This document shows, in pieces, positions 46,921 to 64,000 of a stretch of 64,000 nucleotides of DNA. The DNA comes from Stutzerimonas nosocomialis (GTDB taxonomy: Bacteria > Pseudomonadota > Gammaproteobacteria > Pseudomonadales > Pseudomonadaceae), in NCBI RefSeq assembly GCF_005876855.1, contig NZ_QLAE01000013.1, positions 1 through 64,000 on the forward strand. The letters are read 5' to 3'. The notes below the pieces were generated by a model, which was not told where the DNA came from, searched no databases, and was given only the letters and a program-made list of their open reading frames with translations. The position numbers and the translations under genes are program-made. How positions within the stretch are numbered: position 1 is the first letter of the stretch; each line of letters opens with the position of its first letter.

Positions 46921-47730
46921 TCAGGATTGTTGATCTAATACGGCCGCAACGCTGGCGACGTTATCCGACAGATGTTGCAGGTTGATGGTTCCGACGATGG
47001 CGCTGGCGACACCGGGCTCGCCGAACAGCAGTTCGAAGCTGCGCCTCACCGGGTCTTCGCCGTTGGCAAGGCACGCATGGCCGCTGGCCAGGGCCTTTTT
47101 CACCAGGATGCCTTTGGCGTGCGCGGCGGCGTAGTCGATCACCGCTTTCTCCTCGCGCGCCTGCAGGTTGTAGGTGACCATCGCGCAGTCGCCCTCGCGC
47201 AGAGCGAGCAGGCCACCCTCGACGGTCTTGCCGGAGAACCCGAACGCCAGCAGCTTGCCCTCGCGCTTGAGGTCGGCGAGCGTCTGGTAGACGTCGGATT
47301 GCTCGAGGATCGCCAGGTCGTTGCCGTCGGAATGGACCAGCACCAGGTCGATCCGGTCGGTTTTCAGGCGCTTGAGGCTGCGCTCGACCGAATAGCGGGT
47401 GTGGGCGGCGGAAAAGTCGAAGCGCGACTGCCCGTTCTCGAATTCCTCGCCGACCTTGCTCACCAGCACCCAGTCGTTCCGCCGACCCTGCAGCAGCGGG
47501 CCGAGTCGCTCCTCGCTGGTGCCGTATGCCGGCGCGGTGTCGATCAGGTTGATGCCCAGTTCGCGGGCGCAGGCGAGCAGCCGGAGGGCCTGCTGGTCGT
47601 CGGGAATGGTGAATCCGTTGGGGTACTTGACGCCCTGGTCGCGCCCGAGCTTCACGGTGCCCAGGCCCAGCGGCGACACCCGAAGGCCGGTGCTGCCCAA
47701 CGGGCGATGCAGGTCATGCAGCGTCTTCAC
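46921..47730 (-). CDS. Aldo/keto reductase
   Basis: A 269-residue TIM-barrel NAD(P)H-dependent oxidoreductase. Catalytic residues are visible: Asp and Tyr in LIDTAPAYGTSEERLG, Lys in VLVSKVGEEF and His in LVLVHSDGND. The start is GTG at 47730, with GGAGGAG eight bases upstream and a GTGA overlap with the stop of the upstream FAD oxidoreductase gene. This fits better than any longer frame on that strand. The substrate is unknown. The coupling suggests the two redox enzymes act on related metabolites. Confidence 0.88.
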   Translation of the reverse strand: MKTLHDLHRPLGSTGLRVSPLGLGTVKLGRDQGVKYPNGFTIPDDQQALRLLACARELGINLIDTAPAYGTSEERLGPLLQGRRNDWVLVSKVGEEFENGQSRFDFSAAHTRYSVERSLKRLKTDRIDLVLVHSDGNDLAILEQSDVYQTLADLKREGKLLAFGFSGKTVEGGLLALREGDCAMVTYNLQAREEKAVIDYAAAHAKGILVKKALASGHACLANGEDPVRRSFELLFGEPGVASAIVGTINLQHLSDNVASVAAVLDQQS

Positions 47731-48902
47731 GGTAGCAACTCCTCCCAGAAGGGCCTGGCCAGCGGCGGACGCGGCAGGGTCGGAAGCGGCGCGTGGGGCA
47801 GGGGGTGGATGCCGTCGTTTCGGAGCGCGGCTTCGACGCGGTCGGAAAAGTCCGGCGCGAGGGCGAGCTTGGTCGGCCAGCCGACCAGCAGGCGGCCCTG
47901 TTCGGCGAGAAAGGCGTTGTCCGGTCGGACCTGGTTCGATTGCGCCGGCTCGGCGCGCTCGACCCGCAGCGTGGCCCACTGCGCATCGCTGAGGTCGATC
48001 CAGGGCACCAGGTCCGCCAGCTCGCGCCTGGCGGCTTCGATCTGCGCTTCGGGCGCGCGCGCCACGCCGTCCGCCTCGGCAAGGTCGCCGCCCAGGTACC
48101 AGACCCAGCGGCCGTCGCTCGCCGGATGGCTGGTCACCGTGACGCGCGGCTTGGTGCCGCCCCCCAGGCAATGGGCGTACAGCGGCTTGAGGTTGACCGA
48201 CTTGACGATGACCATGTGCAGCGGTCGCCGCTGCATCGCGGGTTGGTCCAGCCCCAGCGAGGCGAGCAGCTCGGCATTGCCGGCGCCGGCGTTGAGCACG
48301 ATGCGCTGGGCCCTTATCGCGATGCCGTCGACCGTCAGCCCGACGAGTTCCGCGCCTTCGTGCAGAGGCTCGATCCGCGTGGCCGCCATCAGGCTGTCAC
48401 CGGCCAGCTGCGCCAGGCGCGCGATCAGGCTGGGAACGTCGAGCACCAGCTCGCTCAGGCGGTACACCTTGCCCTTGAAGCGGGAATTCTGCAGCGCCGG
48501 GGGCAGCGCGTCGCCCTTGACCTGTTCGACGCGCGAACGCACCGCCTTGCTGGCGAAGAAGCTGGTGAGGTTGCCGGCCAGCGTGCCGGGCGACCACAGG
48601 TAATGCGCATCCGACAGCAGGCGTACGCCGGCCAGATCGAGTTCGCCGGTGCCGGCGATCGCCTCGCGCCAGCGGCGGGGCATGTCGGCGATGGCCTCGG
48701 AGGCGCCGGTCAGCGCGCCGTGCAGCGCATACTTGGTGCCGCCGTGGATGATGCCCTGGGATTTGATGCTCTGTCCGCCACCCAGCGCGCCGCGCTCGAG
48801 CAGTACCGTCGAATAGCCCTGCTGGCGCAGGCGTGCATTGAGCCATAGTCCGGCGACGCCGCCGCCGACGATCAGTACGTCTGTGCTCAGGGATGTGGAC
48901 AT
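47727..48902 (-). CDS. FAD-dependent oxidoreductase, DAO family
   Basis: A 391-residue flavoprotein of the D-amino-acid oxidase/glycerol-3-phosphate dehydrogenase superfamily. The ADP-binding motif VLIVGGGVAGLWLNARLRQQ is at residues 8-27, and the second-domain GRLLVGWPTKLA lies near the C-terminus. KSQGIIHGGTKYAL near residue 46 forms part of the flavin pocket. ATG 48902 has GAGG seven bases upstream. It corresponds to PA4991 by position. The substrate is unknown. It is translationally coupled to the aldo/keto reductase. Confidence 0.87.
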   Translation of the reverse strand: MSTSLSTDVLIVGGGVAGLWLNARLRQQGYSTVLLERGALGGGQSIKSQGIIHGGTKYALHGALTGASEAIADMPRRWREAIAGTGELDLAGVRLLSDAHYLWSPGTLAGNLTSFFASKAVRSRVEQVKGDALPPALQNSRFKGKVYRLSELVLDVPSLIARLAQLAGDSLMAATRIEPLHEGAELVGLTVDGIAIRAQRIVLNAGAGNAELLASLGLDQPAMQRRPLHMVIVKSVNLKPLYAHCLGGGTKPRVTVTSHPASDGRWVWYLGGDLAEADGVARAPEAQIEAARRELADLVPWIDLSDAQWATLRVERAEPAQSNQVRPDNAFLAEQGRLLVGWPTKLALAPDFSDRVEAALRNDGIHPLPHAPLPTLPRPPLARPFWEELLP

Positions 48903-48976
48903 GTCCGGCCTCGCGTTGGAAACAGGGCGGCAGTATAACCCGCGCCGTTCAGGCGGGTTTCGGCGGCGCTGCCGGG

Positions 48977-49309
48977 TCAGTGCCCGGTGCTGCTGGAAAA
49001 CAGCTGGATCACCACCACGCCCGCGATGATCAGCACCATCCCCAGCACGGCCGGCAGGTCGAGCTTCTGGGCGTAGAGGACCGAGGCGGCGACGCTCACC
49101 AGGACGATGCCCAGGCCTGCCCAGATCGCATAGGCGATACCCACCGGGATGCTCTTGACCACGAGGCTCAGCATCCAGAACGAAATGCAATAGCCGAACA
49201 CGACCAGCGCCAGCGGCAACGGCTTGTTGAACCCGTCGAGCGCTTTCATCGAGGTGGTGGCGATCACTTCTGCGGCGATGGCCAAGGCGAGGTAGAGGTA
49301 GGCGGGCAT
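48977..49309 (-). CDS. emrE: Small multidrug resistance (EmrE-like) transporter
   Basis: A 110-residue four-helix proton-coupled antiporter. The essential membrane glutamate is E14 (AIAAEVIATTS), and the signature GIAYAIWAGLGIVLV is in helix 3. It acts as a dimer that exports quaternary cations. ATG 49309 is preferred over longer in-frame starts because AAGGA precedes it and the first helix begins directly. It is 74 bases upstream of the FAD oxidoreductase gene, as I recall for PA4990. Confidence 0.9.
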   Translation of the reverse strand: MPAYLYLALAIAAEVIATTSMKALDGFNKPLPLALVVFGYCISFWMLSLVVKSIPVGIAYAIWAGLGIVLVSVAASVLYAQKLDLPAVLGMVLIIAGVVVIQLFSSSTGH

Positions 49310-49453
49310 GGGCAGTCCTTGAGCGAAGGCGGGCGGTTGCGCGTCGAGAATGACAGGCAACGCTAGCATTGATCGTACGTCCGGCGCATGGCTGGCCGCG
49401 TCCCGCATCGGTACGCTCCGCGCCACCGCCGCCTTTTGCTAAGCTGCGCGGCC

Positions 49454-50722
49454 ATGAACAGACCCCTCTATACGCTGCTTTTTCACCTCGCCCTGCCGCT
49501 GATCGCGTTGCGCCTGCTGTGGCGCGCCTGGCGGGCTCCGGCCTATTCGCGCCGAGTCGGCGAGCGCTTCGCCGTGGGCCTGCCACCCCTGCGCCAGGGC
49601 GGCATCTGGGTGCATGCGGTCTCGGTTGGCGAAAGCATCGCCGCCGCGCCGATGATCCGTGAGCTGATGGCGCGGTATCCGCAGATGCCGATCACCGTCA
49701 CCTGCATGACTCCCACCGGTTCCGAGCGCATTCGGGCGCTGTTCGGCGACAGCGTCCAGCATTGCTACCTGCCCTACGACCTGCCCTGGGCGGCGGCGCG
49801 CTTTCTCGATCGCCTGCGCCCGCAGCTGGCGGTAGTGATGGAGACCGAACTGTGGCCCAACCACATCCACCAGTGCGCCCGACGCGGCATTCCGGTGGTG
49901 CTGGCCAATGCGCGGTTGTCCGAGCGTTCGGCCCGTGGCTATGGGCGGTTCGGCGGGCTCGTCGCGCCGATGCTGGCCGAGCTGGCCTGCATCGCCGTGC
50001 AGACCGAGGCCGAGGCCGAGCGTTTCCGGGCGCTGGGCGCGCGGGCGGAGGCGGTGCAGGTGACCGGGTCGATCAAGTACGACCTGGCCATCGATCCGCA
50101 GCTCTGCGAGCGCGCTGCCCTGCAGCGGCAGGCATGGCGGGAGCGGCCGGTGTGGATCGCGGCCAGTACCCATCGTGGGGAAGACGAGGTCGTCCTTTCG
50201 GCTCACCGCCAGCTCCTGGCGGATCGTCCCGACGCGTTGCTGATTCTGGTGCCGCGTCATCCCGAGCGGTTCGGCGACGTGCATGCGCTGGCGCGCAGGC
50301 AAGGGTTCGCCACGGTCAGGCGATCGCTCGACGAGCCGGTCGGTGCAGATACCCAGGTTCTGCTCGGAGACACCATGGGCGAGCTGCTCTATTTCTATGC
50401 GCTGGCGGATCTCGCCTTCGTCGGCGGCAGCCTGGTGCCCAACGGCGGGCACAACCTGCTCGAGCCGGCGGCGCTGGGCAAGCCGGTGCTCAGCGGTCCG
50501 CACCTGTTCAACTTCGAGGAAATCGCTGCGCGGTTGCGTGAAGGTGGTGCCCTGGTGCAGGTCGAAGACGCCGAAGGGCTCCATGCGCAACTGCTGCGCC
50601 TATGGAGTGATGATGCGGCTGCGGCGCGGATGCGCGAGGCCGGGCTCTCGGTGGTCAGGGCCAACCAGGGAGCGTTGCGGCGCCTGCTGGACATCCTCGG
50701 TGCGGCCCTGGCGCGCCCTTGA
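49454..50722 (+). CDS. waaA: 3-deoxy-D-manno-octulosonate (Kdo) transferase
   Basis: A 422-residue GT30 membrane-associated enzyme that adds Kdo residues to lipid IVA, the first committed core step. A hydrophobic N-terminal anchor (YTLLFHLALPLIALRLLW) precedes GIWVHAVSVGESIAAAPMIR near residue 50. The donor-site motifs are VAVVMETELWPN-like (VVMETELWPNHIHQCARRGI) near 127 and GGSLVPNGGHNLLEPAALGK near 320. ATG 49454 is used; an ATG 22 codons upstream adds a non-hydrophobic arginine-rich stretch foreign to the family. It converges with tolC at a shared terminator. Confidence 0.95.
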   Translation: MNRPLYTLLFHLALPLIALRLLWRAWRAPAYSRRVGERFAVGLPPLRQGGIWVHAVSVGESIAAAPMIRELMARYPQMPITVTCMTPTGSERIRALFGDSVQHCYLPYDLPWAAARFLDRLRPQLAVVMETELWPNHIHQCARRGIPVVLANARLSERSARGYGRFGGLVAPMLAELACIAVQTEAEAERFRALGARAEAVQVTGSIKYDLAIDPQLCERAALQRQAWRERPVWIAASTHRGEDEVVLSAHRQLLADRPDALLILVPRHPERFGDVHALARRQGFATVRRSLDEPVGADTQVLLGDTMGELLYFYALADLAFVGGSLVPNGGHNLLEPAALGKPVLSGPHLFNFEEIAARLREGGALVQVEDAEGLHAQLLRLWSDDAAAARMREAGLSVVRANQGALRRLLDILGAALARP

Positions 50723-52400: not shown

Positions 52401-54485
<2,085 letters not shown>

Positions 54486-54680
54486 CGGGCCCGAACGCTG
54501 CATGTGCTGTATGTGCAGCTTCTGGTCGCGGGCGGGGCGCAAAGCGTCCCGTCGGCTTCCAAAATGAACGATAACCGAGGCTGTTGGGATGAATACCTTG
54601 CTGGTTGTGATTTCTCAGATTGCCTCCGGATATTTGCGCAATCTGGAATGCGACCAACCAGTTCTTCTCATGATCCCCTG
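54486..54680. other. Gap after thiC with a possible 30-codon ORF
   Basis: No clear terminator is seen; GGGGCGCAAAGCGTCCC (about 54535-54551) is a weak hairpin without a T-run. An ATG at 54589 with GAGG eight bases upstream opens a 30-codon frame (MNTLLVVISQIASGYLRNLE and so on) ending at 54681, just as the transposase remnant begins. It could be the cut-off 5' end of an older gene or chance. Confidence 0.3.
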
Positions 54681-55057
54681 ATGAGACTGCAGCAAGCACG
54701 CCTCACGGTCAGCCCTTTGGTTCATGCCCAGCAGGGCTTGCGTGCCGAGGAGGCTGCTCGGGCCTCCGGCGACATGGCAAAGCGACGACGCGCCTCATGC
54801 TATGTCCGAAGTCTTGATGGTACGCCTCGCCGAACAACGCTGTGCTCGCAAGATTGGTCGGCAGTTGCAAACGAGCTGGGCTTGGCCCTAAGCACAGCGG
54901 CACATCGCCTCGAATGGTTGGCTTGCATCATCTGGCCGAGCTGAATCCAGCACGTCCGGTGATCTGCTATGAGTACCAGGGATGGTATCTGGACTCAAAG
55001 AAGTGGGTCGATTTTTCGCAAGCCGGCCATCTCGTTACGGGAGACTGCAAGCAGTAG
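54681..55057 (+). pseudogene. Decayed IS481-family transposase fragment
   Basis: Three stretches match, from memory, the N-terminal half of IS481 transposases. The first is QQARLTVSPLVHAQQGLRAE with EEAARASG, the start of the HTH region. The second, in the same frame, is VANELGLALSTAAHRLE. The third, after a frame change, is GLHHLAELNPARPVICYEYQ, then SKKWVDFSQAGHLVTGD. The region between the first two is scrambled or deleted, and the DDE catalytic core and 3' end are missing. The reading frame is broken, so it is inactive. Terminal inverted repeats were not identified. It marks the boundary between thiC and the accessory glycosylation cluster. Confidence 0.82.
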
Positions 55058-55461
55058 CTCGGATAGCGCCGGCTGGGAGTTGTCCATAGGGCCATCGACG
55101 AGGCCAGTCGATACCGTTCAGCTCGGATGAATCCGAAACCGTTCGTTTGGTTTTGTAATTTGTCGACGTGCCCGGTTGGCTATGCCGGTCGGTTTATCGC
55201 TACCACAAAGGCGATAAATGCCCACTTGCGGAAACTTTTTAGGCTTTCCGCCCTCCAATATCCGCTCCAGTCTAAGAGCTGTTAGCAGAACGCCTAAGCA
55301 CTTCTTGACGGAGGGCTCCGAAGGTATCGGAACCGGTCGCGTTAAAGCTCGTTCTCTTTGGGTCTAGGGTAAGCCTGATTCTGCAAGCTGCTGTGCAGGC
55401 CCTTCCTATGGGCGATGTAACGCAATGACTATCAATATGGAGTTCACGAGGTAAGTTCTGC
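55058..55461. other. A/T-richer non-coding stretch with paired hairpins
   Basis: No supportable gene is seen in these 404 bases. They hold two adjacent hairpins, each with 7-bp arms and a 10-base loop: TTATCGC/GCGATAA at 55194-55217 and GCGGAAA/TTTCCGC at 55228-55251. CCGG repeats lie just before them. The right end carries the GAGG ribosome site of the next gene. The stretch probably contains the promoter of the accessory cluster, but no convincing -35/-10 pair was found by eye. Confidence 0.55.
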
Positions 55462-56433
55462 ATGAGTTTCTCCGATGTGAATCCGCCAAGAGCTCTGACA
55501 AGGGATGGGGCTGGCTTGCATGTCGCAATCCTGCTCACCACCTTTAATGGGGGACGGTTTCTTGAAGAGCAGCTGAACTCCATCGCCGGGCAAACTCATC
55601 GCGACTGGACGTTGTACATCTCTGACGATGGGTCATCGGATGCTACGCCGCATATCATTGAGCGTTTTCAGCAGCGGCTCGGTTCGGATCGGGTGCACTT
55701 GCTCAACGGCCCCCGGGTTGGCTTTGCGCAAAACTTTCTTTCGTTGGTGCGCAATTCAAAGATCGAAGCGGATTTTTTCGCCTTCAGCGATCAGGACGAT
55801 ATCTGGTTTCCGGACAAGCTCGAGAGGGCTCTGGCACGGCTTCCGCAGGTGGCTGGCAAGTGCCCGGCGATGTATTGCTCCAGAACACGGCTGGTCGACG
55901 AATCGGGTAATTTTATCGGTTATTCGCCGCTGTTCGTCCGGACGCCGAGTTTCCAGAATGCGCTGGTACAAAGCCTGGCCGGCGCCAATACCATGCTGCT
56001 GAACAGGTCAGCACGCGACCTGCTCGCGGCAGTTCCGTCGACGGCGCCCGTTGTATCCCATGATTGGCTTTGCTATCTGCTGGTCAGCGGTTGTGGTGGT
56101 CAAGTCTTCTATGATGCTCAGCCAACCATCGACTACCGGCAGCATGGAGGCAACGTTATTGGCTCCAACACCGGCCTGTTGGATCGCTGGCTGCGTATCC
56201 GTAGGATGTTGTCCGGCACCTTTCGCGACTGGAATCAGAACAACCTAGTCGTGCTGCGACATTTTCGCTCACAGCTTACCGCCGAAAATCGGGACGTGCT
56301 CTGCCAGTTCGTGCTTGCGCGCAAGAGCTGTTTCGCCGCCCGTCTGCGGCTGCTCTGGGAAGCCGGTCTATATCGTCAGACCATCCTCGGTAATATCGGG
56401 CTCGTCGTTGCGGTCAGCATGAGGAAGATCTAA
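55462..56433 (+). CDS. GT2 glycosyltransferase (rhamnosyltransferase-like)
   Basis: A 323-residue GT-A enzyme. It has LHVAILLTTFNGGRFLEEQL near residue 20, the nucleotide motif WTLYISDDGSSDATPHIIER near 52, FFAFSDQDDIWFPDKLERAL near 100 (the DxD region) and SHDWLCYLLVSGCGG near 197, all typical of family-2 rhamnosyl- or glucosyltransferases. It is the first gene of the right-hand cluster and is separated from the next by 85 bases. Donor and acceptor are unknown; it could extend an O-chain or decorate the core. Confidence 0.85.
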   Translation: MSFSDVNPPRALTRDGAGLHVAILLTTFNGGRFLEEQLNSIAGQTHRDWTLYISDDGSSDATPHIIERFQQRLGSDRVHLLNGPRVGFAQNFLSLVRNSKIEADFFAFSDQDDIWFPDKLERALARLPQVAGKCPAMYCSRTRLVDESGNFIGYSPLFVRTPSFQNALVQSLAGANTMLLNRSARDLLAAVPSTAPVVSHDWLCYLLVSGCGGQVFYDAQPTIDYRQHGGNVIGSNTGLLDRWLRIRRMLSGTFRDWNQNNLVVLRHFRSQLTAENRDVLCQFVLARKSCFAARLRLLWEAGLYRQTILGNIGLVVAVSMRKI

Positions 56434-56518
56434 TCATTCTCCCGATCACCACAGACCGCATGCCCCGGACGTCGAGTGATTGCTGGCTCGGCAGTCCAAT
56501 ACTTCAAGGAACAGTGCC

Positions 56519-57550
56519 GTGATTCATCCCATCTTTCTGTCGGTCGTCATTACTGTTCGAAATCAGTCTAGTGTGCTCGAGGGGCTAGTAGCAGGTCTGG
56601 GGCAGGGGCTCGGTGGGCTGGTTAGGGACTACGAGTTGATTATCGTGGACAATGCGTCGGAGGATGACTCGCTGGCTAGGCTCAAGGCCTTGACCGATGA
56701 GGGCGGGCTGCCCAACTTGCAGGTCTATGCTCTGACCAAAGAGGTGGATGCCGACACCGCTTCCTGGGCCGGCATGGAAAACGCCCTAGGCGATTTTGTC
56801 GTGGTCATCGATCCGCTTGTAGACGACGTGGCCTTCCTGCCCTCGATGCTCGAGCACTCTATCGGCGGCGCCGACGTGGTGTTTGCCTGCAACCGCCAGA
56901 AGCCAGCGCGTAGCCTTGCCTACAAGGCAGCCAGCGCAGTGTTCGACAGTCTCTATAAGAGGTTCAACGGCATTCACTTGAGCAAGGAAGCGCCGCAGTA
57001 CCGGGTGCTCAGCAAGCGTGTGGTGAACTTCATGCTGCAGCACCCGCAGCCGGCCCTGGCATACCGCTATCTGCCTGCTACTGCCGGGTTCATCAAGGTG
57101 AATCTGAGCTACAGCGCCTCACCACGGATTCGCCATACCAAGCGCTTGGGCGAAAGCGTGGACCGGGGCCTGCGGTTGCTGGTCTCGACCACCCGGGCGC
57201 CGATGCGCATCGTCACCTCGCTGGCCCTGTTTGGCGCTGTGGCCAACCTCGTCTATTCGGTCTATGTGGTGCTCGTCGGCCTGCTGAAGGAGGATGTCGC
57301 GCCCGGTTGGGTCAGTCTGTCGTTGCAACAGTCTGGTATGTTCTTTCTGATCTCCATGGTTCTGCTAGTGCTCGGTGAGTACATCTTGCATATGGCAAGC
57401 CTGTCCAACGAGGGGCCTCCCTATCATGTAGGGCAGGAATTCACGAGCGCTCACATGTCGCGGCGCGAGAAGCTCAATATCGAGGAAGTGGGCGGTGAAG
57501 AGGCTGAGGCGGCCCGCCCTTTTCCGGAGTATGTAGCCAATGGGCACTGA
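56519..57550 (+). CDS. Polyprenol-phosphate-type GT2 with two C-terminal membrane helices
   Basis: A 343-residue enzyme resembling GtrB/ArnC/DPM1-type transferases that load a sugar onto undecaprenyl phosphate at the cytoplasmic face. The GT2 core has VVITVRNQSSVLEGL, YELIIVDNASEDDSL and DFVVVIDPLVDDVAF (acidic motif near residue 97). Two membrane helices lie at about 225-252 and 270-298. The start is GTG at 56519, with AAGGA eight bases upstream; an upstream TTG frame is less likely. It overlaps the next gene by 11 bases. Confidence 0.83.
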   Translation: MIHPIFLSVVITVRNQSSVLEGLVAGLGQGLGGLVRDYELIIVDNASEDDSLARLKALTDEGGLPNLQVYALTKEVDADTASWAGMENALGDFVVVIDPLVDDVAFLPSMLEHSIGGADVVFACNRQKPARSLAYKAASAVFDSLYKRFNGIHLSKEAPQYRVLSKRVVNFMLQHPQPALAYRYLPATAGFIKVNLSYSASPRIRHTKRLGESVDRGLRLLVSTTRAPMRIVTSLALFGAVANLVYSVYVVLVGLLKEDVAPGWVSLSLQQSGMFFLISMVLLVLGEYILHMASLSNEGPPYHVGQEFTSAHMSRREKLNIEEVGGEEAEAARPFPEYVANGH

Positions 57551-58706
57551 GCAGTACGATGCCGATGCGGTGATCATCGGCGGCGGCTTCTACGGAGCGG
57601 CGATCGCCATCTACCTGGCGAAGCAGCGCGGCCTACGCCGTATTGTCTTGTTCGAACGCGAGGCGGCGCTACTGCAGCATGCTTCCTATAACAACCAGGC
57701 GCGGGTGCACAACGGCTACCATTATCCACGCAGTTTCACCACGGCGTACCGCAGCCGGATCAATCTGCCCCGCTTCGTGCGCGATTGGCCTCAAGCGGTG
57801 AAGCAGGACTTCACCAAGTTGTACGCTATCGCCCGGCGTAACTCCAAGGTGACCGCCCGGCAGTTCGAGCGCTTCTGTCGGGACATCGGCGCTTCGATCG
57901 CAACGGCCGACAAGGCGCAGCGCGAGCTGTTCGAATCTCGTTTGATCGAGAACGTGTTTATCGTGCAGGAGTACGCCTTCGATACCACCAGGCTGGCGGA
58001 GTGGGCGCTTGCCGAACTGTCCGATCTAGGCGTAGAGCTCCGCTGCGAAGTCCAGGTCGCAAACATTTTCAGGGGCGCCGGCAGTTCGCTGCGGGTCGAG
58101 GCCGAGTCTCGTCGTGGGGAGGGCATCACTTGCACCAGCCGCTATGTCTTCAACTGCACCTACAGTGGCCTGAACCAGTTCGGCGGAGACTTCCCCGGTA
58201 CCAGCACCCGGCTCAAGCAGGAAATCACCGAGATGCCGCTGATGCAGGTGCCGCCTGCACTACGTGATATTGGGGTAACGGTGATGGACGGGCCGTTCTT
58301 TTCCATGATGCCGTTCCCGGCGCGATGCCTTCATACGTTGTCCCATGTCCGTTACACACCGCACCTGAACTGGAACGACGTGCGGGGCATCGATCCCTAT
58401 CAGCGACTCGAGCAGTACGCCCGGGCTTCCCGGGTCGACCGCATGGTGCGGGATGTTGGGCGCTACCTGCCGGCGGTGCTAGACGCCTGGCATATCGATT
58501 CGCTGTTTGAGGTCAAGACTGTGCTGGTCAAGAACGAGGGCGACGATGGTCGGCCGATCCTGTTCGAGCGGCACGCCGAACTGCCCGGTTGCTATTCGGT
58601 GCTCGGCGGCAAGATAGACAATATCTACGACGTTCTCGAAAAACTCGATGCCGAGGTTTTCGAACCCACCAGGGGCAGTTTCATGTTGAGGAGTTCCAAT
58701 GGCTGA
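57540..58706 (+). CDS. FAD-dependent oxidoreductase of the glycan cluster
   Basis: A 388-residue DAO-superfamily flavoprotein. The Rossmann motif ADAVIIGGGFYGAAIAIYLA is at residues 8-27, ending the strand with VLFERE. NNQARVHNGYHYPRSFTTAY near residue 52 belongs to the flavin/substrate region of polysaccharide-locus members of this family. It would oxidise a sugar or sugar-linked substrate; the identity is unknown. It overlaps both neighbours (11 and 8 bases), tying it to the GT2 upstream and the SDR downstream. Confidence 0.8.
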   Translation: MGTEQYDADAVIIGGGFYGAAIAIYLAKQRGLRRIVLFEREAALLQHASYNNQARVHNGYHYPRSFTTAYRSRINLPRFVRDWPQAVKQDFTKLYAIARRNSKVTARQFERFCRDIGASIATADKAQRELFESRLIENVFIVQEYAFDTTRLAEWALAELSDLGVELRCEVQVANIFRGAGSSLRVEAESRRGEGITCTSRYVFNCTYSGLNQFGGDFPGTSTRLKQEITEMPLMQVPPALRDIGVTVMDGPFFSMMPFPARCLHTLSHVRYTPHLNWNDVRGIDPYQRLEQYARASRVDRMVRDVGRYLPAVLDAWHIDSLFEVKTVLVKNEGDDGRPILFERHAELPGCYSVLGGKIDNIYDVLEKLDAEVFEPTRGSFMLRSSNG

Positions 58707-59487
58707 CGCGCTGATAGGCTATACCGGTTTCGTAGGGAGTACCCTGCTCCGGCAGACCCGCTTCGACCACCTGTACCGCTCGACAAATATCGCCGAGATC
58801 GAGGGGCACGCTTTCGGCACTGTGGTCTGCGCTGGGGCGCCGGCCCAGAAGTGGATCGCCAACCGCGACCCCGAGGGCGATCGCCGGAAGATCGAGGCGC
58901 TGATCGCTCACCTCCGGGGGATGACCTGCGAGCGCTTCATCCTTATCAGTACGGTGGATGTGTTCAAGTCCGCAGTGGACGTCGACGAACGCACGCCGGT
59001 GGACGAGGAGGGGCTGCATGCCTACGGACTCAACCGCCGGCTGTTGGAGCGATTCGTCGAGGATCATTTCCCGAATCACCTGATTGTGCGCCTGCCCGGG
59101 CTGGTGGGGCCGGGACTACGCAAGAACGTCATCTACGACTTCCGCAACGACAACAATCTGCAAGCCATCGATAGCCGCGGGGTGTTCCAGTTCTATCCAA
59201 TGGTCAACCTGTGGGCGGATATTCGCACCGCACTCGACGCCGGGCTGCGCCTGGTGCACCTGACCGCCGCACCGATCAGCGTGGCCGATGTCTCTCTGCA
59301 AGGCTTCGGTCGTCCCTTCGAGCAGGTCAAGGATGGCGCGGCGGCCCGCTACGACATGCAAAGCTGCCATGCCGCTCTGTTCGGAGGTCTGGGGGGCTAC
59401 CAGTACAGCGTCCGCGAGACCTTGTCAGCCATCCGGGCCTATGCCCAGTCCGAGCCGCCTGCACGAATGACAGAGGACGGCAAATGA
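58699..59487 (+). CDS. Short SDR/epimerase-like protein of the glycan cluster
   Basis: A 262-residue NAD(P)-dependent sugar epimerase/dehydratase-like protein. The nucleotide motif ALIGYTGFVGSTLLRQ starts at residue 4, and FILISTVDVFKSA forms the mid-sheet. The catalytic tyrosine region reads LHAYGLNRRLLE, giving Y-x3-R where most SDRs have Y-x3-K. GAGGAG precedes the ATG. It overlaps the FAD gene by 8 bases and the isomerase gene by 4. It may complete a redox or epimerisation step begun by the FAD enzyme. Confidence 0.78.
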   Translation: MADALIGYTGFVGSTLLRQTRFDHLYRSTNIAEIEGHAFGTVVCAGAPAQKWIANRDPEGDRRKIEALIAHLRGMTCERFILISTVDVFKSAVDVDERTPVDEEGLHAYGLNRRLLERFVEDHFPNHLIVRLPGLVGPGLRKNVIYDFRNDNNLQAIDSRGVFQFYPMVNLWADIRTALDAGLRLVHLTAAPISVADVSLQGFGRPFEQVKDGAAARYDMQSCHAALFGGLGGYQYSVRETLSAIRAYAQSEPPARMTEDGK

Positions 59488-60317
59488 GACTGGCCATTTC
59501 CAACATCGCCTGGGAAGTGGACGAAGACGAGGCCATCGTTGCTCTGCTCCAGCGATATGCAATCGACGCCATCGATATCGCACCGGGCAAGTATTTTCCC
59601 GAGCCGGCTCGCGCCACTGACCAGGATATCGCCCGCGTCCGGGCCTGGTGGGGCGAGCGGGGCATCGAGCTCACCGGGATGCAAGCGCTGCTGTTCGGCA
59701 CCACAGGGCTGAACCTGTTCGCCGAGCAATCGGTGCAGCAGGCCATGCTCGCGCATCTGGGCGCCGTCTGTCGCATCGCCGGCGGACTGGGCGCCACGCG
59801 CCTGGTGTTCGGCTCGCCGAAGAATCGCGACCGTTCGGGACTGGACGACCGGCAGGTAAAGGAGAAATCCACCCGCTTTTTCCGGCAGCTCGGTGACATC
59901 GCGCAAAGCCATGGTGTGATGATCTGTCTAGAGCCCAACCCGGCCTGTTACGGGGCCAATTTCATGACCGGCAGTCTGGAAACGCTCGCGGTGGTCGAGC
60001 AGATCGAACATCCGGCCGTGCGCATGCAGCTAGACACCGGGGCGATCACTCTCAATGAGGAGAATGCTGCCGAGGTGGTTGAGTGCTGCGCTCCGTATAT
60101 TGGACACGTGCACGCCAGCGAGCCGAATCTGGTGCCGCTGGGCGATGGCGGCTGCGATCACGCCGGCGCGGCGCACGCCCTGACCGAGCGCCTGCCCTCC
60201 CATCTGGTCACCATCGAGATGGTGGCGACACGGAACGAACCCCACGTCGTGTCGATCGAGCGCGCGTTGCAAGTCGCTGTCTCTTACTATCGCCAGGACG
60301 GCAGGGCCAGTACATGA
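59484..60317 (+). CDS. Xylose-isomerase-like TIM-barrel sugar isomerase/epimerase
   Basis: A 277-residue protein of the AP-endonuclease-2/xylose isomerase-like family. Metal-ligand candidates are E in MICLEPNPACYG near residue 152, D in VRMQLDTGAITL near 185, H in IGHVHASEPN near 212 and E in LVTIEMVATRNE near 248. It would isomerise or epimerise a small sugar or sugar phosphate. The ATG at 59484 overlaps the SDR stop (ATGA); longer frames upstream are out of the family. Its stop overlaps the next ATG. Confidence 0.82.
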   Translation: MRLAISNIAWEVDEDEAIVALLQRYAIDAIDIAPGKYFPEPARATDQDIARVRAWWGERGIELTGMQALLFGTTGLNLFAEQSVQQAMLAHLGAVCRIAGGLGATRLVFGSPKNRDRSGLDDRQVKEKSTRFFRQLGDIAQSHGVMICLEPNPACYGANFMTGSLETLAVVEQIEHPAVRMQLDTGAITLNEENAAEVVECCAPYIGHVHASEPNLVPLGDGGCDHAGAAHALTERLPSHLVTIEMVATRNEPHVVSIERALQVAVSYYRQDGRAST

Positions 60318-60670
60318 AATGGATGATTCTGCTGCTGGGGATTCTCTCCAATGCCCTGGCAAGCGTGCTGGTGAAGGTGGCCATGACGCCCCCGAGGCAG
60401 TTCCCCTCTCTTCGCGACCCCCTCGCCGCGCTGACAAACTGGCCGTTCTGGTTGGGACTGGCGCTTTATGGCGGCGCCTTCTTGCTGTATGCCGCAGCTC
60501 TTGCCCGGCTGCCGCTGAACGTGGCGCACCCCATCCTAACCTCCGGTGCGGTCGCGACCGTCGCCCTGTTCTCGGTGTTCCTGTTCAGGGAAACCCTGCA
60601 CTGGACGACCCTGGCTGGCATCGTGCTGGTCATAGCCGGCGTGGCGCTGATCACAGCCAAGGCGGCCTGA
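60314..60670 (+). CDS. ArnE-sized EamA/SMR-like membrane protein
   Basis: A 118-residue protein with four hydrophobic segments: MILLLGILSNALASVLVKVA, FWLGLALYGGAFLLYAAALA, HPILTSGAVATVALFSVFLF and LAGIVLVIAGVALITA. Its size and topology match half-flippases such as ArnE/ArnF that move lipid-linked sugars across the inner membrane. It is coupled by ATGA to the isomerase gene and is four bases from the following GT2. Only one such protein is seen in the window, so it may work as a homodimer or with a partner beyond the edge. Confidence 0.8.
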   Translation: MKWMILLLGILSNALASVLVKVAMTPPRQFPSLRDPLAALTNWPFWLGLALYGGAFLLYAAALARLPLNVAHPILTSGAVATVALFSVFLFRETLHWTTLAGIVLVIAGVALITAKAA

Positions 60671-60674
60671 ACCT

Positions 60675-61511
60675 ATGAATGAAATGAACATGATCCATGA
60701 CATCGCACCCGAGGTGCGCGCCCACTGGCAAGTGCCGACCTACGAGGCCCGCCTCTGGCAGGGCCGCACGCAACCCTGGTGTGTGGTGATCCCGGTGATC
60801 AACGAGGGCGAGCGGATCAGGAACCTGATCAGCCGCATGGCAGATCTGGCTATCCCGGGCATTGCCGACATTGTCATCGTCGATGGCGGCAGCACCGATG
60901 GTTCTCTGGCCACCGACTGGTTGGAGGGTAAAGGGGTGCGTGCCCTGCTGGTGAAGACCGGGCCGGGCAAGCTGAGTGCCCAACTGCGCTGCGCCTATGC
61001 CTTCGTCTTGGAGCAGGGCTACGAGGGCATCGTGACCATCGATGGCAACAACAAGGACGACCCCGACACCATCCGGGACTTCATCGACGCGCTGCGCCTG
61101 GGCGTCGACTTCGCCCAGGCCTCCCGCTTCGTGCCGGGCGGGATTGCCGAGAACACGCCCAAATCGCGGAATCTGGCGATAAAGTACATCCATGCGCCGA
61201 TGCTGAGCCTGGCTTCGGGCTTCAAGTGGACGGACACCACCCAGGGCTACCGAGGCTACAGTCGCAGGATGCTGCTCGATCCGCAGATATCGATCTTCCG
61301 CGACGTGTTCGTCAAGTACGAACTCCTGGCCTATCTCTCCTATCGCGCGCCGAAGCTCGGCTACTGTTGCAAGGAGTTGCCCACCACGCGACGCTATCCG
61401 AAGGATGAGGTGCCAACCAAGATCAGCGGCCTCAAGGGTAATCTCGAGGTGTTCTTAGTGCTGTCCAACGCCTGTATGGGGCGCTACAACCCAAGTGAAA
61501 AGGACGTCTAA
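60675..61511 (+). CDS. DPM-like GT2 glycosyltransferase without membrane tail
   Basis: A 278-residue GT2 with WCVVIPVINEGERIRNLISR near residue 35, IADIVIVDGGSTDGSLATDW near 63 and GIVTIDGNNKDDPDTIRDFI near 117 (the acidic metal site), as in dolichol-phosphate-mannose synthase-like enzymes. Unlike the GT2 at 56519 it has no obvious C-terminal membrane helices. It could load a second sugar on a lipid carrier or use the product of the neighbouring redox enzymes. It is separated by five bases from the next gene. Confidence 0.82.
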   Translation: MNEMNMIHDIAPEVRAHWQVPTYEARLWQGRTQPWCVVIPVINEGERIRNLISRMADLAIPGIADIVIVDGGSTDGSLATDWLEGKGVRALLVKTGPGKLSAQLRCAYAFVLEQGYEGIVTIDGNNKDDPDTIRDFIDALRLGVDFAQASRFVPGGIAENTPKSRNLAIKYIHAPMLSLASGFKWTDTTQGYRGYSRRMLLDPQISIFRDVFVKYELLAYLSYRAPKLGYCCKELPTTRRYPKDEVPTKISGLKGNLEVFLVLSNACMGRYNPSEKDV

Positions 61512-61516
61512 TACAC

Positions 61517-64000
61517 ATGCACCTTCGTAAGCTCACGGCGCTCTGCAGAAGTGACCGCGTGGCTGTCATGATGCTCATCACGCTAATGCTGCTGTTACTG
61601 CTGGTCTTTAGCCTTGGGAAATCCCTGTTCTTTAATAGCATACCTATAGATGGGGCATTTCAGCACCTGAACCCGATGCGTCGTATCGCTGCGGGTGAGT
61701 TGCCTGGACAGGATTTTCATGTTTTCCATGGCTTAGCAATTTCGTACCTGCACTACCCACTGTATTTGCTGTTCGGTGAAACGTTATTCGCATCGGAAAT
61801 GTCGCGTTATTTTCTTAATGGCTTAGCTGGCTATGCAGCGGTGTTGGCCCTGTTCGCCGGCTCCGAGCGCTGGCGGACCGCTCTGGTGCTGGCAGTGGCC
61901 TACGTAGTCTTGACCCGTCTGCTGGGACTTTTCTGGCTGACCGATCCTTTTGGCAATGCTTATTCGTCACTGGCGGTGCGCACATTAGTACCAGCGCTGG
62001 CTTTTGGCTACCTGCTCTATGCGAACAGGCGAGGTATGCTGGAGTCACATTCGGTAACCCGTATTGTGATGCCGCTGGCATTGGCCAGCGCAGCGGCAAT
62101 GGTCGCGGCGACTGAGCAGGGGGCTGCCTTGTTCCTAGCATCCGCGGGCGGATTGCTGATCCTGCGAATCGGCCATTCAAGTTTGCTGGTTTGTCTGCGC
62201 GACGTGCTGGTGCTAGTGGTGGCTTCCGTGCTGCTTTATTTGCTGCTGGTCTTTGTGGCTAGCGGCGGCACACCGCTGGCAGCGCTGCGTTTCACTTGGC
62301 GCGATCTACCTTCCGACCAGTTCTGGTACTTCGGAGCCTATCCGAACATCTTCGCCCAGCGCTTCTCTGATCTGTTTTTGGTGCCTGGTACTAGCCGGCC
62401 GTTAACAGTATTTTTCGTCGCAGGATTGGCAACCTTGTGGGCATTGGCGCGCCTGCCGTTGCTTGGTGTGCCCGTTGAACGGCGAGCCAACAAGATTTGG
62501 CTGATGGCGCTCGCATACGGCTACGTGACGCTCATTTCCAATTTAGGAATGGTGTCATCGCACTACAGCGAGGCATTGCTTCGCATTTCAAGTGCATTTC
62601 TGTTTCTATCGGTTTTTGCCGTTGTGCGTCAGCATATAGGTGTTGACCGCTGGCAAGCCTGGCGCGCCCCTTTTGCTTGGGTGTTGGTGTTAGTGGTAAT
62701 GCTGTTCCCTGGCCGTTTTCAAGGGCTGGCTTGGGCAGGGGTAGATCTGTACCGAAACTATCGGGAGACCGTTCTGCTACCTCGCCACTCCGGAGTGTTG
62801 CCGGTGGGGCGGGAATATCAAGGCTTGTTCGATGTGGCTGCGCGGATCATCCCCCCCGCGCCTCTTATGGGGGGCCGCCTAGATGCCGGGCCGCAACCAA
62901 TTGCATCCACTGGCTACCTCCTAATAAGAGCGCCAGAGTCGGTGTTGGCTTCGTCGTTGCAACAGGGGGATTCGATCACGGTGAACGGTGTGTCCGAGAC
63001 GTTGGCACAGGTGGCACCATCTCATGTACTGATGACTTCCAAAAATGCGGCCGAGCGGTACGAATTCCGCTATGTCGGGCGCGGTGGTCGCGAGATCCGC
63101 TTGGCGCCAACACCCTACTATTCCGCTATCTCTGGTCTCTGGCGCAACGGCGTGGCTCTGCCTGACGATAGGGGTGGATGTCTTATGGTGGAGCACAGCA
63201 GGAAGCTGCGCGGGGTGACGCGTCATCGAGTGGTACGCTTTGACGGAGAAGCGGAAGAGCGACAGGTCACTTCCATACACGGCAACATCCTCTGCGTCTC
63301 TGGCGAGCGGCTAGAGCCCTATACCCATGGCTTCCCTGTTCGCTTCACGGTGGCGGCCGAAATGGCCTTCAGCTTGCCGTCGTTCGAGCTGGCGGATTAC
63401 CAAGGCACGGCCCGAGCCCTGTATGAGATTGAGCAAAAATCCAATTCGGCGGTGCGGACGCATGATTACTATGAGAGCTATCTTTGGGACCGTACCTATT
63501 CACAGTATAGTCATTCGCCTTTAGCCGCATACAAGCGTCAGGTGGCTCGCTGGGAAGGAGACCCTTGTGCTCCGGGGGAGCAGCCGACGCTATGGTCCAC
63601 CTACACTGGATTCCTCGCCCTACAGGCGGAGGTGGTTAATCCGGCGCAAACCGACTACATCATCCATGCCTTAGGTAGCGATGCGCGCAAACGTTATGTC
63701 GAGCGATTCGCTCAGGTTCGCCCGACTTACGTGCACACCTTGCGTTCCTCGTATACCGCTTATGAACGATGGTTGCAGACTACGACTTGGGAGTTCTATC
63801 AACTTCTGCTGGCCAACTATGAGGTGGTGGGGCGTACAGCCTACAGTCTTATCTGGCAACGCAAGCCTGTTAACGGGAGCATCGCCTGGTTTGAACGTCC
63901 CGGTGCTATTTGTAAGGCCAGTCATGCGGCTTGGCACGATGCGGACTATGTCTGGGAAGGCGAAATCGAAGTCCCACCAGGCGCCCAGGAAATCGATCTC
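61517..64000 (+). CDS. Very large GT-C-like membrane glycosyltransferase, incomplete at window end
   Basis: The frame from ATG 61517 stays open for 828 codons to the last base of the window, so the true size is larger. About ten hydrophobic helices occupy roughly residues 15-430. An early periplasmic loop has SIPIDGAFQHLNPMRRIAAG followed by GQDFHVFHG, with the acidic residue placement of GT-C enzymes. From about 430 onward a long soluble, presumably periplasmic, region follows. Codon use (frequent TTA, CTA, ATA, AGG) differs from the flanking core genes. It probably transfers a lipid-linked sugar made by the genes upstream. The ribosome site is weak, AAAAGGA about 12 bases before the ATG. 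Confidence 0.75.
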   Translation, partial: MHLRKLTALCRSDRVAVMMLITLMLLLLLVFSLGKSLFFNSIPIDGAFQHLNPMRRIAAGELPGQDFHVFHGLAISYLHYPLYLLFGETLFASEMSRYFLNGLAGYAAVLALFAGSERWRTALVLAVAYVVLTRLLGLFWLTDPFGNAYSSLAVRTLVPALAFGYLLYANRRGMLESHSVTRIVMPLALASAAAMVAATEQGAALFLASAGGLLILRIGHSSLLVCLRDVLVLVVASVLLYLLLVFVASGGTPLAALRFTWRDLPSDQFWYFGAYPNIFAQRFSDLFLVPGTSRPLTVFFVAGLATLWALARLPLLGVPVERRANKIWLMALAYGYVTLISNLGMVSSHYSEALLRISSAFLFLSVFAVVRQHIGVDRWQAWRAPFAWVLVLVVMLFPGRFQGLAWAGVDLYRNYRETVLLPRHSGVLPVGREYQGLFDVAARIIPPAPLMGGRLDAGPQPIASTGYLLIRAPESVLASSLQQGDSITVNGVSETLAQVAPSHVLMTSKNAAERYEFRYVGRGGREIRLAPTPYYSAISGLWRNGVALPDDRGGCLMVEHSRKLRGVTRHRVVRFDGEAEERQVTSIHGNILCVSGERLEPYTHGFPVRFTVAAEMAFSLPSFELADYQGTARALYEIEQKSNSAVRTHDYYESYLWDRTYSQYSHSPLAAYKRQVARWEGDPCAPGEQPTLWSTYTGFLALQAEVVNPAQTDYIIHALGSDARKRYVERFAQVRPTYVHTLRSSYTAYERWLQTTTWEFYQLLLANYEVVGRTAYSLIWQRKPVNGSIAWFERPGAICKASHAAWHDADYVWEGEIEVPPGAQEIDL

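What the first reader, a model, noticed from the sequence alone, without database searches (positions are those of the whole stretch)
56519..64000. Candidate undescribed lipid-linked sugar modification pathway
The genes are arranged as a polyprenol-phosphate GT2 with membrane anchors, an FAD oxidoreductase, an SDR, a TIM-barrel isomerase, an ArnE-sized flippase-like protein, a second GT2, and a very large GT-C-like protein. Overlaps of 4-11 bases at four junctions and gaps of 4-5 bases at the last two imply one operon. Known three-gene gtrABC systems have a flippase, a GT2 and a transferase but no sugar-converting enzymes. The FAD enzyme plus SDR recall the two-step oxidation/reduction of lipid-linked ribose to arabinose by DprE1/DprE2, though the flavoprotein fold here is different. 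The model is: charge the lipid, oxidise/reduce/isomerise the sugar, flip, then transfer in the periplasm. Junctions and motifs are seen; the pathway is inference.
Basis: partly seen in the sequence, partly recalled or inferred. Interest (0 to 1): 0.78.

Follow-up and report, generated by a model that had tools for sequence, protein, structure and literature searches.

The report
Sugar-remodelling cassette for lipid-carried sugars
A conserved set of six genes, found in many bacteria and, in diverged form, on a small plasmid and in a prophage-like contig, likely oxidises, rearranges and re-reduces a sugar that is predicted to hang on a membrane lipid, after which the sugar would be flipped outward and attached to the cell surface.

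Summary
The operon is real but extends beyond the reported interval on both sides. So the FAD enzyme always has a reductase-type partner: SDR plus TIM barrel, or AKR. Diverged sets sit on a 10.8-kb mobilisable plasmid and in a prophage-like contig; five viral contigs keep only FAD-SDR-TIM, once with SDR and TIM fused. GT2b has lost three of five GtrB active-site residues; GT2c keeps both acceptor-phosphate arginines of DPMS but not its metal ligands, so which GT2 charges the lipid is unsettled. Best model: gtr-like periplasmic glycosylation with oxidation, epimerisation and reduction of a lipid-linked sugar, comparable with DprE1/DprE2 but with other enzymes. Linkage, order, families and folds are shown; substrate, sugar and acceptor are inferred. 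Eight paper searches, five of which listed nothing, found no description. Closest published work: Kelly et al. 2024.

The parts
55462..56433 (+). GT2a, family 2 glycosyltransferase; probably the first gene of the operon
   Evidence: PF00535 E 3e-18; same position in L046 and L047, the only 2 of 80 loci with a match of at least 80% cover
56519..57550 (+). GT2b, GtrB/ArnC-like membrane-anchored protein with a degenerate catalytic site (GTG start)
   Evidence: PF00535 E 1e-9, phrog_841 GtrB-like E 2e-28; match in 80 of 80 loci, which were collected by FAD, and in the same 22 of 398 genomes as FAD; residue mapping
57540..58706 (+). FAD enzyme of the DAO superfamily with the motif NQxR[LV]HxGxHYPR
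58699..59487 (+). SDR-fold protein, RmlD/GalE-like, with YxxxR in place of YxxxK
59484..60317 (+). TIM-barrel epimerase/isomerase, AP_endonuc_2 family
   Evidence: PF01261 E 9e-19; matches D-tagatose/D-psicose 3-epimerases; E151, D185, H211, E246 invariant in 72 of 72 and 12 of 12 (these numbers count from 59481, one codon before the ATG)
60314..60670 (+). Small EamA/SMR protein, predicted lipid-linked sugar flippase (ArnF-like)
   Evidence: PF10639 E 1e-8, PF00892 E 6e-8; ArnF NF002816 E 2e-6, below its cut-off
60675..61511 (+). GT2c, DPMS-like GT2, the better but unproven candidate for charging the lipid
   Evidence: PF00535 E 8e-8; best PDB match DPMS 5mlz E 1.4e-8; D123, R151, R165 kept, DPMS metal ligands D91 and Q93 changed to N and K in 64 of 65
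61517..64000 (+). Large polytopic membrane protein, GT-C-like by hydropathy only; cut by the window, ends at contig base 64336 (939 aa)
   Evidence: no Pfam family above cut-off and no PDB match

Best explanation
The seven genes form an operon that likely works as a periplasmic glycosylation system of the gtr kind with a predicted built-in sugar-remodelling step: a sugar would be loaded onto undecaprenyl phosphate by GT2c, oxidised to a keto sugar by the FAD enzyme, epimerised or isomerised next to the ketone by the TIM barrel, reduced by the SDR, flipped by the EamA protein and transferred outside by the large membrane protein. GT2b, a GtrB relative that has lost three of the five GtrB active-site residues, would be the membrane partner that presents the lipid-phosphate sugar to the FAD enzyme. 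A second version of the system replaces SDR+TIM with an aldo/keto reductase, and so would invert one centre only; in both versions the flavin step would drive the epimerisation forward, as in DprE1/DprE2. Shown: gene order, co-occurrence, the swap of reductase, GT2 and flippase families, family and fold assignments, and conserved or lost residues. Inferred: the lipid-linked substrate, the order of steps, the sugar's identity, the acceptor (probably LPS, because the operon lies in an LPS locus) and the roles of GT2b and GT2c.
For: At E <= 1e-40, GT2b in 22 of 398 and FAD in 22 of 398 genomes of one genus, the same 22, with adjacent coordinates; SDR in 19 of 398, all within the 22 and within about 1.5 kb of FAD; AKR in 3 of 398, exactly the other 3; TIM and GT2c, sought only in the 22, in the same 19. 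Best 80 of 311 related named loci: GT2b 80, SDR 72, TIM 71, GT2c 67, EamA 66; 5 carry GT2-AKR-GtrA instead; the other 3 lack SDR on contigs that end within 2.3 kb of FAD. Five plasmid records read of 10: SDR and TIM in the same gene run as FAD in all five, an SMR protein in one, GtrA in three; one is a 10.8-kb plasmid with mobilisation genes. All six core genes plus a membrane protein lie between tail genes and a CI-like repressor in L149. SDR and TIM are one 501-aa frame in L152; a polytopic membrane protein is fused to GT2b in L092. TIM metal-ligand positions invariant. GT2b lacks GtrB residues D96, R122, D157 (roles from PMC4728340).
Against: Nothing shows directly that the substrate is lipid-linked. 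Five viral contigs (L150-L154) keep FAD-SDR-TIM with no GT2b, EamA or GT2c match in the stretch held, and in L150 the next gene is T4 beta-glucosyltransferase-like, which would fit a soluble or DNA-linked substrate. GT2c has lost the DPMS metal ligands D91 and Q93 and the acceptor Ser135, so its charging role is not assured. The SDR has YxxxR, not YxxxK. GT2b keeps D98, D102 and D103 in most copies and may be active. The GT-C-like proteins have no family match above cut-off. 13 of 81 loci show no large polytopic protein in the same-strand run by a crude hydropathy test, which also counts Wzx-like proteins. The loci were collected by FAD, so its GT2b count is conditional. In the census, G294's GT2b came as two pieces and four FAD matches carry a stop. 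The counts ignore phylogeny. In the order-level sample FAD is in only 2 of 245 genomes, one of them the window's own.
Confidence: 0.48

Rival explanations
1. The FAD-SDR-TIM trio makes a soluble activated sugar (NDP-sugar or sugar phosphate), and a GT2 then loads the finished sugar onto the lipid; remodelling comes before lipid loading, not on the lipid.
For: Viral contigs L150-L154 carry the trio without a match to the lipid machinery in the stretch held, beside other glycosyltransferases: phrog_14945 in L151 and L154, a T4 BGT-like protein in L150, a GT2 in L152. RmlD and GalE, among the nearest folds of the SDR, act on NDP-sugars (substrates from the entry titles and recall).
Against: It does not explain why a membrane-anchored GtrB relative with a degraded active site is tied to FAD in 80 of 80 loci and 22 of 22 genomes, in both versions of the system.
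Confidence: 0.28
2. GT2b is an active glycosyltransferase with a non-classical site, so that it charges the lipid itself or makes a second lipid-linked sugar for the same membrane transferase.
For: Two GT2 proteins in the complete systems; GT2b keeps D98 (72 of 78), D102 (77 of 78) and D103 (75 of 78) and is 60-72% identical among the relatives aligned; GT2c has lost the DPMS metal ligands.
Against: Position 100 of GT2b is never acidic or amide in 78; R122 of GtrB is Asn in 78 of 78; D157 is Asp in 1 of 78; in diverged members the DxD region is gone.
Confidence: 0.14
3. The genes are ordinary neighbours in a variable LPS gene cluster, and FAD, SDR and TIM serve unrelated small-molecule reactions.
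For: LPS loci gather many unrelated genes (recalled); the families DAO, SDR and AP_endonuc_2 are broad.
Against: Co-occurrence and adjacency in many genera, on plasmids and in viral contigs, the SDR-TIM fusion in L152, and mutual exclusion with the AKR version.
Confidence: 0.04

Closest known systems
gtr three-component periplasmic glucosylation (GtrA flippase, GtrB, GtrC)
   Same: Small flippase, GtrB-like GT2 and polytopic membrane protein; the AKR version carries a GtrA-family protein (PF04138, tested in L054); a complete set lies in a prophage-like contig (L149)
   Different: Adds a flavoenzyme, a reductase and often a TIM-barrel epimerase; the GtrB relative has lost three of five active-site residues and a second GT2 is present
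DprE1/DprE2 epimerisation of decaprenyl-phosphoryl ribose
   Same: A flavin-dependent enzyme and an NAD(P)-type reductase in one pathway, predicted to act on a polyprenyl-phosphate sugar
   Different: The flavoprotein is of the DAO superfamily (PF01266), not the DprE1 type (DprE1's family is recalled); no phosphoribosyltransferase-type entry gene among the 14 operon and flank proteins scanned; a TIM barrel is added; the reductase can be an AKR
Pentofuranose three-component systems with auxiliary epimerase (Kelly et al. 2024, PMC11127046)
   Same: Predicted polyprenyl-phosphate sugar, epimerising enzymes, flippase and membrane transferase in one surface-glycan cluster
   Different: Their donor enzyme is a phosphoribose synthase and their epimerase a single SDR; here a GT2-based route with FAD plus SDR/TIM or AKR. 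The authors compare theirs with DprE1/E2 and write that they are not aware of other epimerases in O-antigen side-chain systems
Arn pathway (ArnC, ArnD, ArnE/F, ArnT; recalled)
   Same: GT2 with membrane anchors, ArnF-like flippase, lipid-linked sugar altered before flipping (ArnD deformylation)
   Different: No deformylase seen in the operon; redox and isomerase-type enzymes instead

Membership tests
GtrB / polyisoprenyl-phosphate glycosyltransferase (for GT2b) | DXD metal motif (D94, D96 of GtrB) | tested here: not met
   D98 kept in 72 of 78, but position 100 is Leu, Met, Phe, Trp, Thr, Ser or Ile in 78 of 78; D96 falls on a gap in the alignment
GtrB / polyisoprenyl-phosphate glycosyltransferase (for GT2b) | Lipid-phosphate arginines R122 and R200 and catalytic acid D157 | tested here: not met
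   R122 is Asn in 78 of 78; D157 is Gln in 63 and Asp in 1 of 78; R200 is the exception, Lys in 46 and Arg in 13 of 78; roles from PMC4728340 passages
DPMS-like lipid-charging GT2 (for GT2c) | PfDPMS residues D89, D91, Q93, R117, R131, S135 | tested here: inconclusive
   D89, R117 and R131 kept in 64 of 65; D91 is Asn and Q93 Lys in 64 of 65; S135 is Ile in 63 of 65 (roles from PMC5526996 passages)
gtr three-component system | Small membrane flippase | tested here: met
   PF10639 and PF00892 above cut-off; GtrA PF04138 in the AKR version, L054. Flippase activity itself not tested
gtr three-component system | Polytopic GT-C transferase | tested here: inconclusive
   Seven or more hydropathy peaks, but no family above cut-off and no PDB match
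gtr three-component system | No sugar-converting enzymes in the operon | tested here: not met
   FAD, SDR and TIM genes overlap within the operon
DprE1 | DprE1-type flavoprotein family (FAD_binding_4; recalled) | tested here: not met
   Best family is DAO PF01266, E 4e-21; FAD_binding_4 is not among the nine families listed
Pentofuranose three-component system (Kelly 2024) | Polyprenyl phosphoribose synthase gene in the cluster | tested here: not met
   None among the 14 operon and flank proteins scanned against Pfam; the rest of the genome was not searched for one
DAO superfamily | PF01266 above its cut-off | tested here: met
   76.5 bits, cut-off 27.9
AP_endonuc_2 sugar epimerases/isomerases | PF01261 above cut-off and E-D-H-E metal ligands | tested here: met
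   68.6 bits, cut-off 31.1; E151, D185, H211 and E246 invariant; that these are the metal ligands is recalled, and E246 lies outside the alignments printed
Classical SDR | GxxGxxG nucleotide motif | tested here: met
   G7, G10, G13 in 69 of 70, the other row a gap, and 13 of 13 diverged members
Classical SDR | YxxxK | tested here: not met
   Y109xxxR113 in 70 of 70 and 13 of 13
Aldo/keto reductase (second version of the system) | PF00248 above cut-off and D-Y-K-H tetrad | tested here: inconclusive
   54.1 bits in L054 and 66.1 in L033, cut-off 24; D-Y and H motifs in 11 of 11 rows and the K motif in 9 of 11, the two misses both from G385; several rows are the same genome twice; the tetrad is recalled

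The most novel reading that the evidence does not exclude
FAD-SDR-TIM is a portable sugar-remodelling module that inverts centres on a sugar already attached to its carrier. Bacteria use it on lipid-phosphate sugars, presented by a glycosyltransferase turned pseudoenzyme, to make unknown surface sugars, and some large phages would use a diverged form on sugars attached to their DNA.
Probability: 0.25. Interest if true: 0.88.

Novelty: new variant of a known kind. Interest (0 to 1): 0.72.

Why it matters
If true, serotype-type surface modification is not limited to sugars that arrive ready-made as NDP-sugars: a redox epimerisation line can work on the carrier, and exchangeable parts (SDR+TIM or AKR, SMR or GtrA, many different membrane proteins) would give bacteria a modular way to vary surface sugars. 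It would be a second, unrelated enzymatic solution to the problem that DprE1/DprE2 solve, and a likely case of a GtrB-type enzyme turned pseudoenzyme. The system is not rare: FAD is in 22 of 398 genomes of one genus, and 7985 of 7999 scored candidates matched FAD at E <= 0.001 in the protein search, which was capped and listed only the best 120, at 73% identity or more; how many of the rest belong to this subfamily was not determined.

Tried and rejected
Rejected: chance clustering. Rejected: GT2b as an ordinary GtrB. Rejected: membership of FAD in DprE1. A JUMPStart-like GGCGGTAG element upstream of the operon: none in 54486-55461; 3 matches in the whole window against 1.9 expected. Sigma-70-type promoter scan of 54400-56600: none found, 1.1 expected by chance. 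Phage records: no match for FAD at E 1e-30 in 50,697 records. Families for the membrane proteins: no Pfam above cut-off for the seven tested, nor for those (the Wzx-like protein apart), where L149's protein has a PMT_2 match below cut-off; no PDB match. NCBIfam: none of the listed matches of the eight proteins reaches its cut-off; for FAD 25 of 33 were listed. Same-genus relatives: 0 of 24 have the FAD gene, 9 of them have weak DAO matches only.

Literature: searches (open-licence PMC full text) looked for this system or its parts; others listed no paper at all, being strict, so the absence is weak evidence. One search was for GtrB structure papers. I read PMC11127046 in part (outline with abstract, section 11, first part of the Discussion) and passages of PMC4728340 and PMC5526996; the other papers I saw only in listings.

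Full report
Observation. The window is bases 1-64000 of a 107,269-base contig in a 4.76-Mb genome. The ORF listing shows the seven reported genes, and the junctions computed from the sequence are overlaps of 11, 8, 4 and 4 bases and gaps of 4 and 5 bases. The last gene continues outside the window to contig base 64336, followed on the same strand by a 536-aa membrane protein, a Wzx-like flippase (PF01943), an SDR, gmd and an rmd-like gene. A GT2 gene ends 85 bases upstream of the reported start. Further upstream lie genes that look like msbA, hldE, waaA, tolC and thiC (names by eye and recall), so the operon sits in an LPS-type neighbourhood. G+C falls from about 0.65-0.70 (48-54 kb) to 0.55-0.64 over the operon, and 0 of 24 other same-genus genomes have the FAD gene beyond weak DAO matches, so acquisition by transfer is likely.

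Conservation. A pattern scan of one genome for each of 84,980 species, with two peptide patterns of the FAD alignment, gave 311 relatives, of which the best 80 were kept. tblastn of window proteins on these 80: GT2b 80, FAD 80, SDR 72, TIM 71, GT2c 67, EamA 66, at 58-85% identity except EamA (49-83%). The outer genes are rarer: GT2a 6 and the large membrane protein 6 (2 each at 80% cover or more), the second membrane protein 4, Wzx 5. The loci come from Pseudomonas, Azotobacter, Burkholderiales, Methylobacter, Legionella santicrucis, a Candidatus Roseilinea and others. The usual order is that of the window, but in some loci a membrane-protein gene sits between FAD and SDR, and in L055 the two blocks are exchanged, so GT2b-FAD and SDR-TIM-EamA-GT2c behave as two blocks. 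68 of 81 loci (the 80 and the window's own) have at least one protein of 350 aa or more with seven or more hydropathy peaks in the same-strand run; 13 do not.

Second version. Five of the 80 loci (L028, L033, L054, L071, L072) have GT2b-FAD followed by another GT2 with an intact DxD, an aldo/keto reductase (PF00248; tested in L054 and L033) and a GtrA protein (PF04138; tested in L054). TIM and GT2c were sought only in the 22: 19 of 22 each, the SDR genomes. Under random placement the overlaps would have probabilities of 1e-36 (GT2b with FAD) and 1e-7 (AKR); these ignore phylogeny and are given for scale only. The AKR of G493 is 100% identical to the query from L054, so one of the three is the query's own species or a twin. 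Some matches are imperfect: GT2b of G294 came in two pieces and four FAD matches carry a stop. At order level FAD is in 2 of 245 genomes at E <= 1e-60, the window's own and a diverged one, G251.

Far relatives. Ten plasmid records hold FAD relatives at 42-54% identity; I read five. All five have SDR and TIM in the same gene run as FAD; three have a GtrA protein and one an SMR protein; GT2b is recognisable at 22-42% in four, and an unmatched ORF of about 340 aa fills the place in the fifth. The Psychrobacter plasmid pA22P4 is 10,782 bases and holds SDR, TIM, SMR, FAD, GT2b, GT2c and a 479-aa hypothetical protein beside mobilisation and replication genes. Seven viral contigs carry relatives: all seven have SDR in the same run as FAD and six also TIM. 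L149 has all six core genes between tail genes and a CI-like repressor. L150-L154 have the trio at 24-41% identity without GT2b, EamA or GT2c matches; in L152 SDR and TIM are one open frame of 501 aa, a natural fusion that ties the two enzymes together.

GT2b and GT2c. Mapping on GtrB through the alignment (all 12 GtrB letters agreed with those named in PMC4728340) shows D96 without counterpart (position 100 never acidic or amide in 78 sequences), R122 replaced by Asn in 78 of 78, D157 by Gln in 63 of 78; D94 is kept in 72 and R200 is Lys or Arg in 59 of 78. In diverged members the DxD region reads DPA, DPF, NIE, NPE or TTP, whereas the GT2c motif DGNxKD is the same in all seven compared. GT2c keeps D89, R117 and R131 of DPMS in 64 of 65, but D91 is Asn, Q93 is Lys and S135 is Ile in nearly all. 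I conclude that GT2b likely no longer transfers sugar and propose that it presents the lipid-phosphate sugar to FAD, with GT2c as the better charging candidate; both conclusions are inference, and the altered metal site of GT2c speaks against certainty.

Mechanism. The FAD enzyme would oxidise a hydroxyl, the TIM barrel would move or invert the neighbouring centre, and the SDR would reduce; the AKR version would omit the middle step. The choice between a lipid-linked and a soluble substrate is not settled: GT2b argues for lipid, the viral contigs argue for a more general substrate. I give 0.48 and 0.28.

Known systems. Kelly et al. 2024 (PMC11127046; abstract, section 11 and first part of the Discussion read) describe pentofuranose three-component systems with an SDR epimerase, compare it with DprE1/E2, and write that they are not aware of other epimerases in O-antigen side-chain systems. 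The present system would fit that gap but uses other families for the flavoprotein, the lipid-charging step and, in one version, the reductase. Eight paper searches aimed at it listed no description; five of them listed nothing at all, and they covered open-licence PMC texts only.

Noticed in passing
L150, 5989-9764 (viral contig of 386 kb): The FAD-SDR-TIM trio is followed directly by a T4 beta-glucosyltransferase-like gene (PF09198, E 6e-15), which suggests remodelling of sugars on phage DNA or of the donor for it.
   Followed up: partly
L149, 312-12775 (viral contig of 35.7 kb): All six core genes and a membrane protein (PMT_2 below cut-off) sit between tail genes and a CI-like repressor, the kind of place where serotype-converting gtr genes are found (recalled).
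   Followed up: partly
L152, 4485-5990: SDR and TIM are fused in one open frame of 501 aa.
   Followed up: partly
L159 (Psychrobacter plasmid pA22P4, 10.8 kb): A small plasmid with mobilisation genes whose cargo is the pathway; GT2b is not in the listed gene table but is found by tblastn at 5425-6399.
   Followed up: partly
L092, 3197-6196: A single 999-aa frame joins a polytopic membrane protein to GT2b; it comes from one MAG.
   Followed up: no
G381 and G419: Two genomes have a second GT2b about 12 kb from the first, without a second FAD match.
   Followed up: no
window 46921-49586, minus strand: Another FAD-type oxidase and aldo/keto reductase pair lies beside the waaA-like gene; judged by eye only.
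   Followed up: no
contig bases 68840-70791, outside the window: gmd and an rmd-like reductase downstream of the operon suggest GDP-D-rhamnose as a neighbouring sugar (recalled pathway).
   Followed up: no
window 59023-59037 (SDR residues 109-113): YxxxR in place of YxxxK in all SDR members compared (70 of 70 and 13 of 13), the most diverged ones included; whether it changes the chemistry is unknown.
   Followed up: partly
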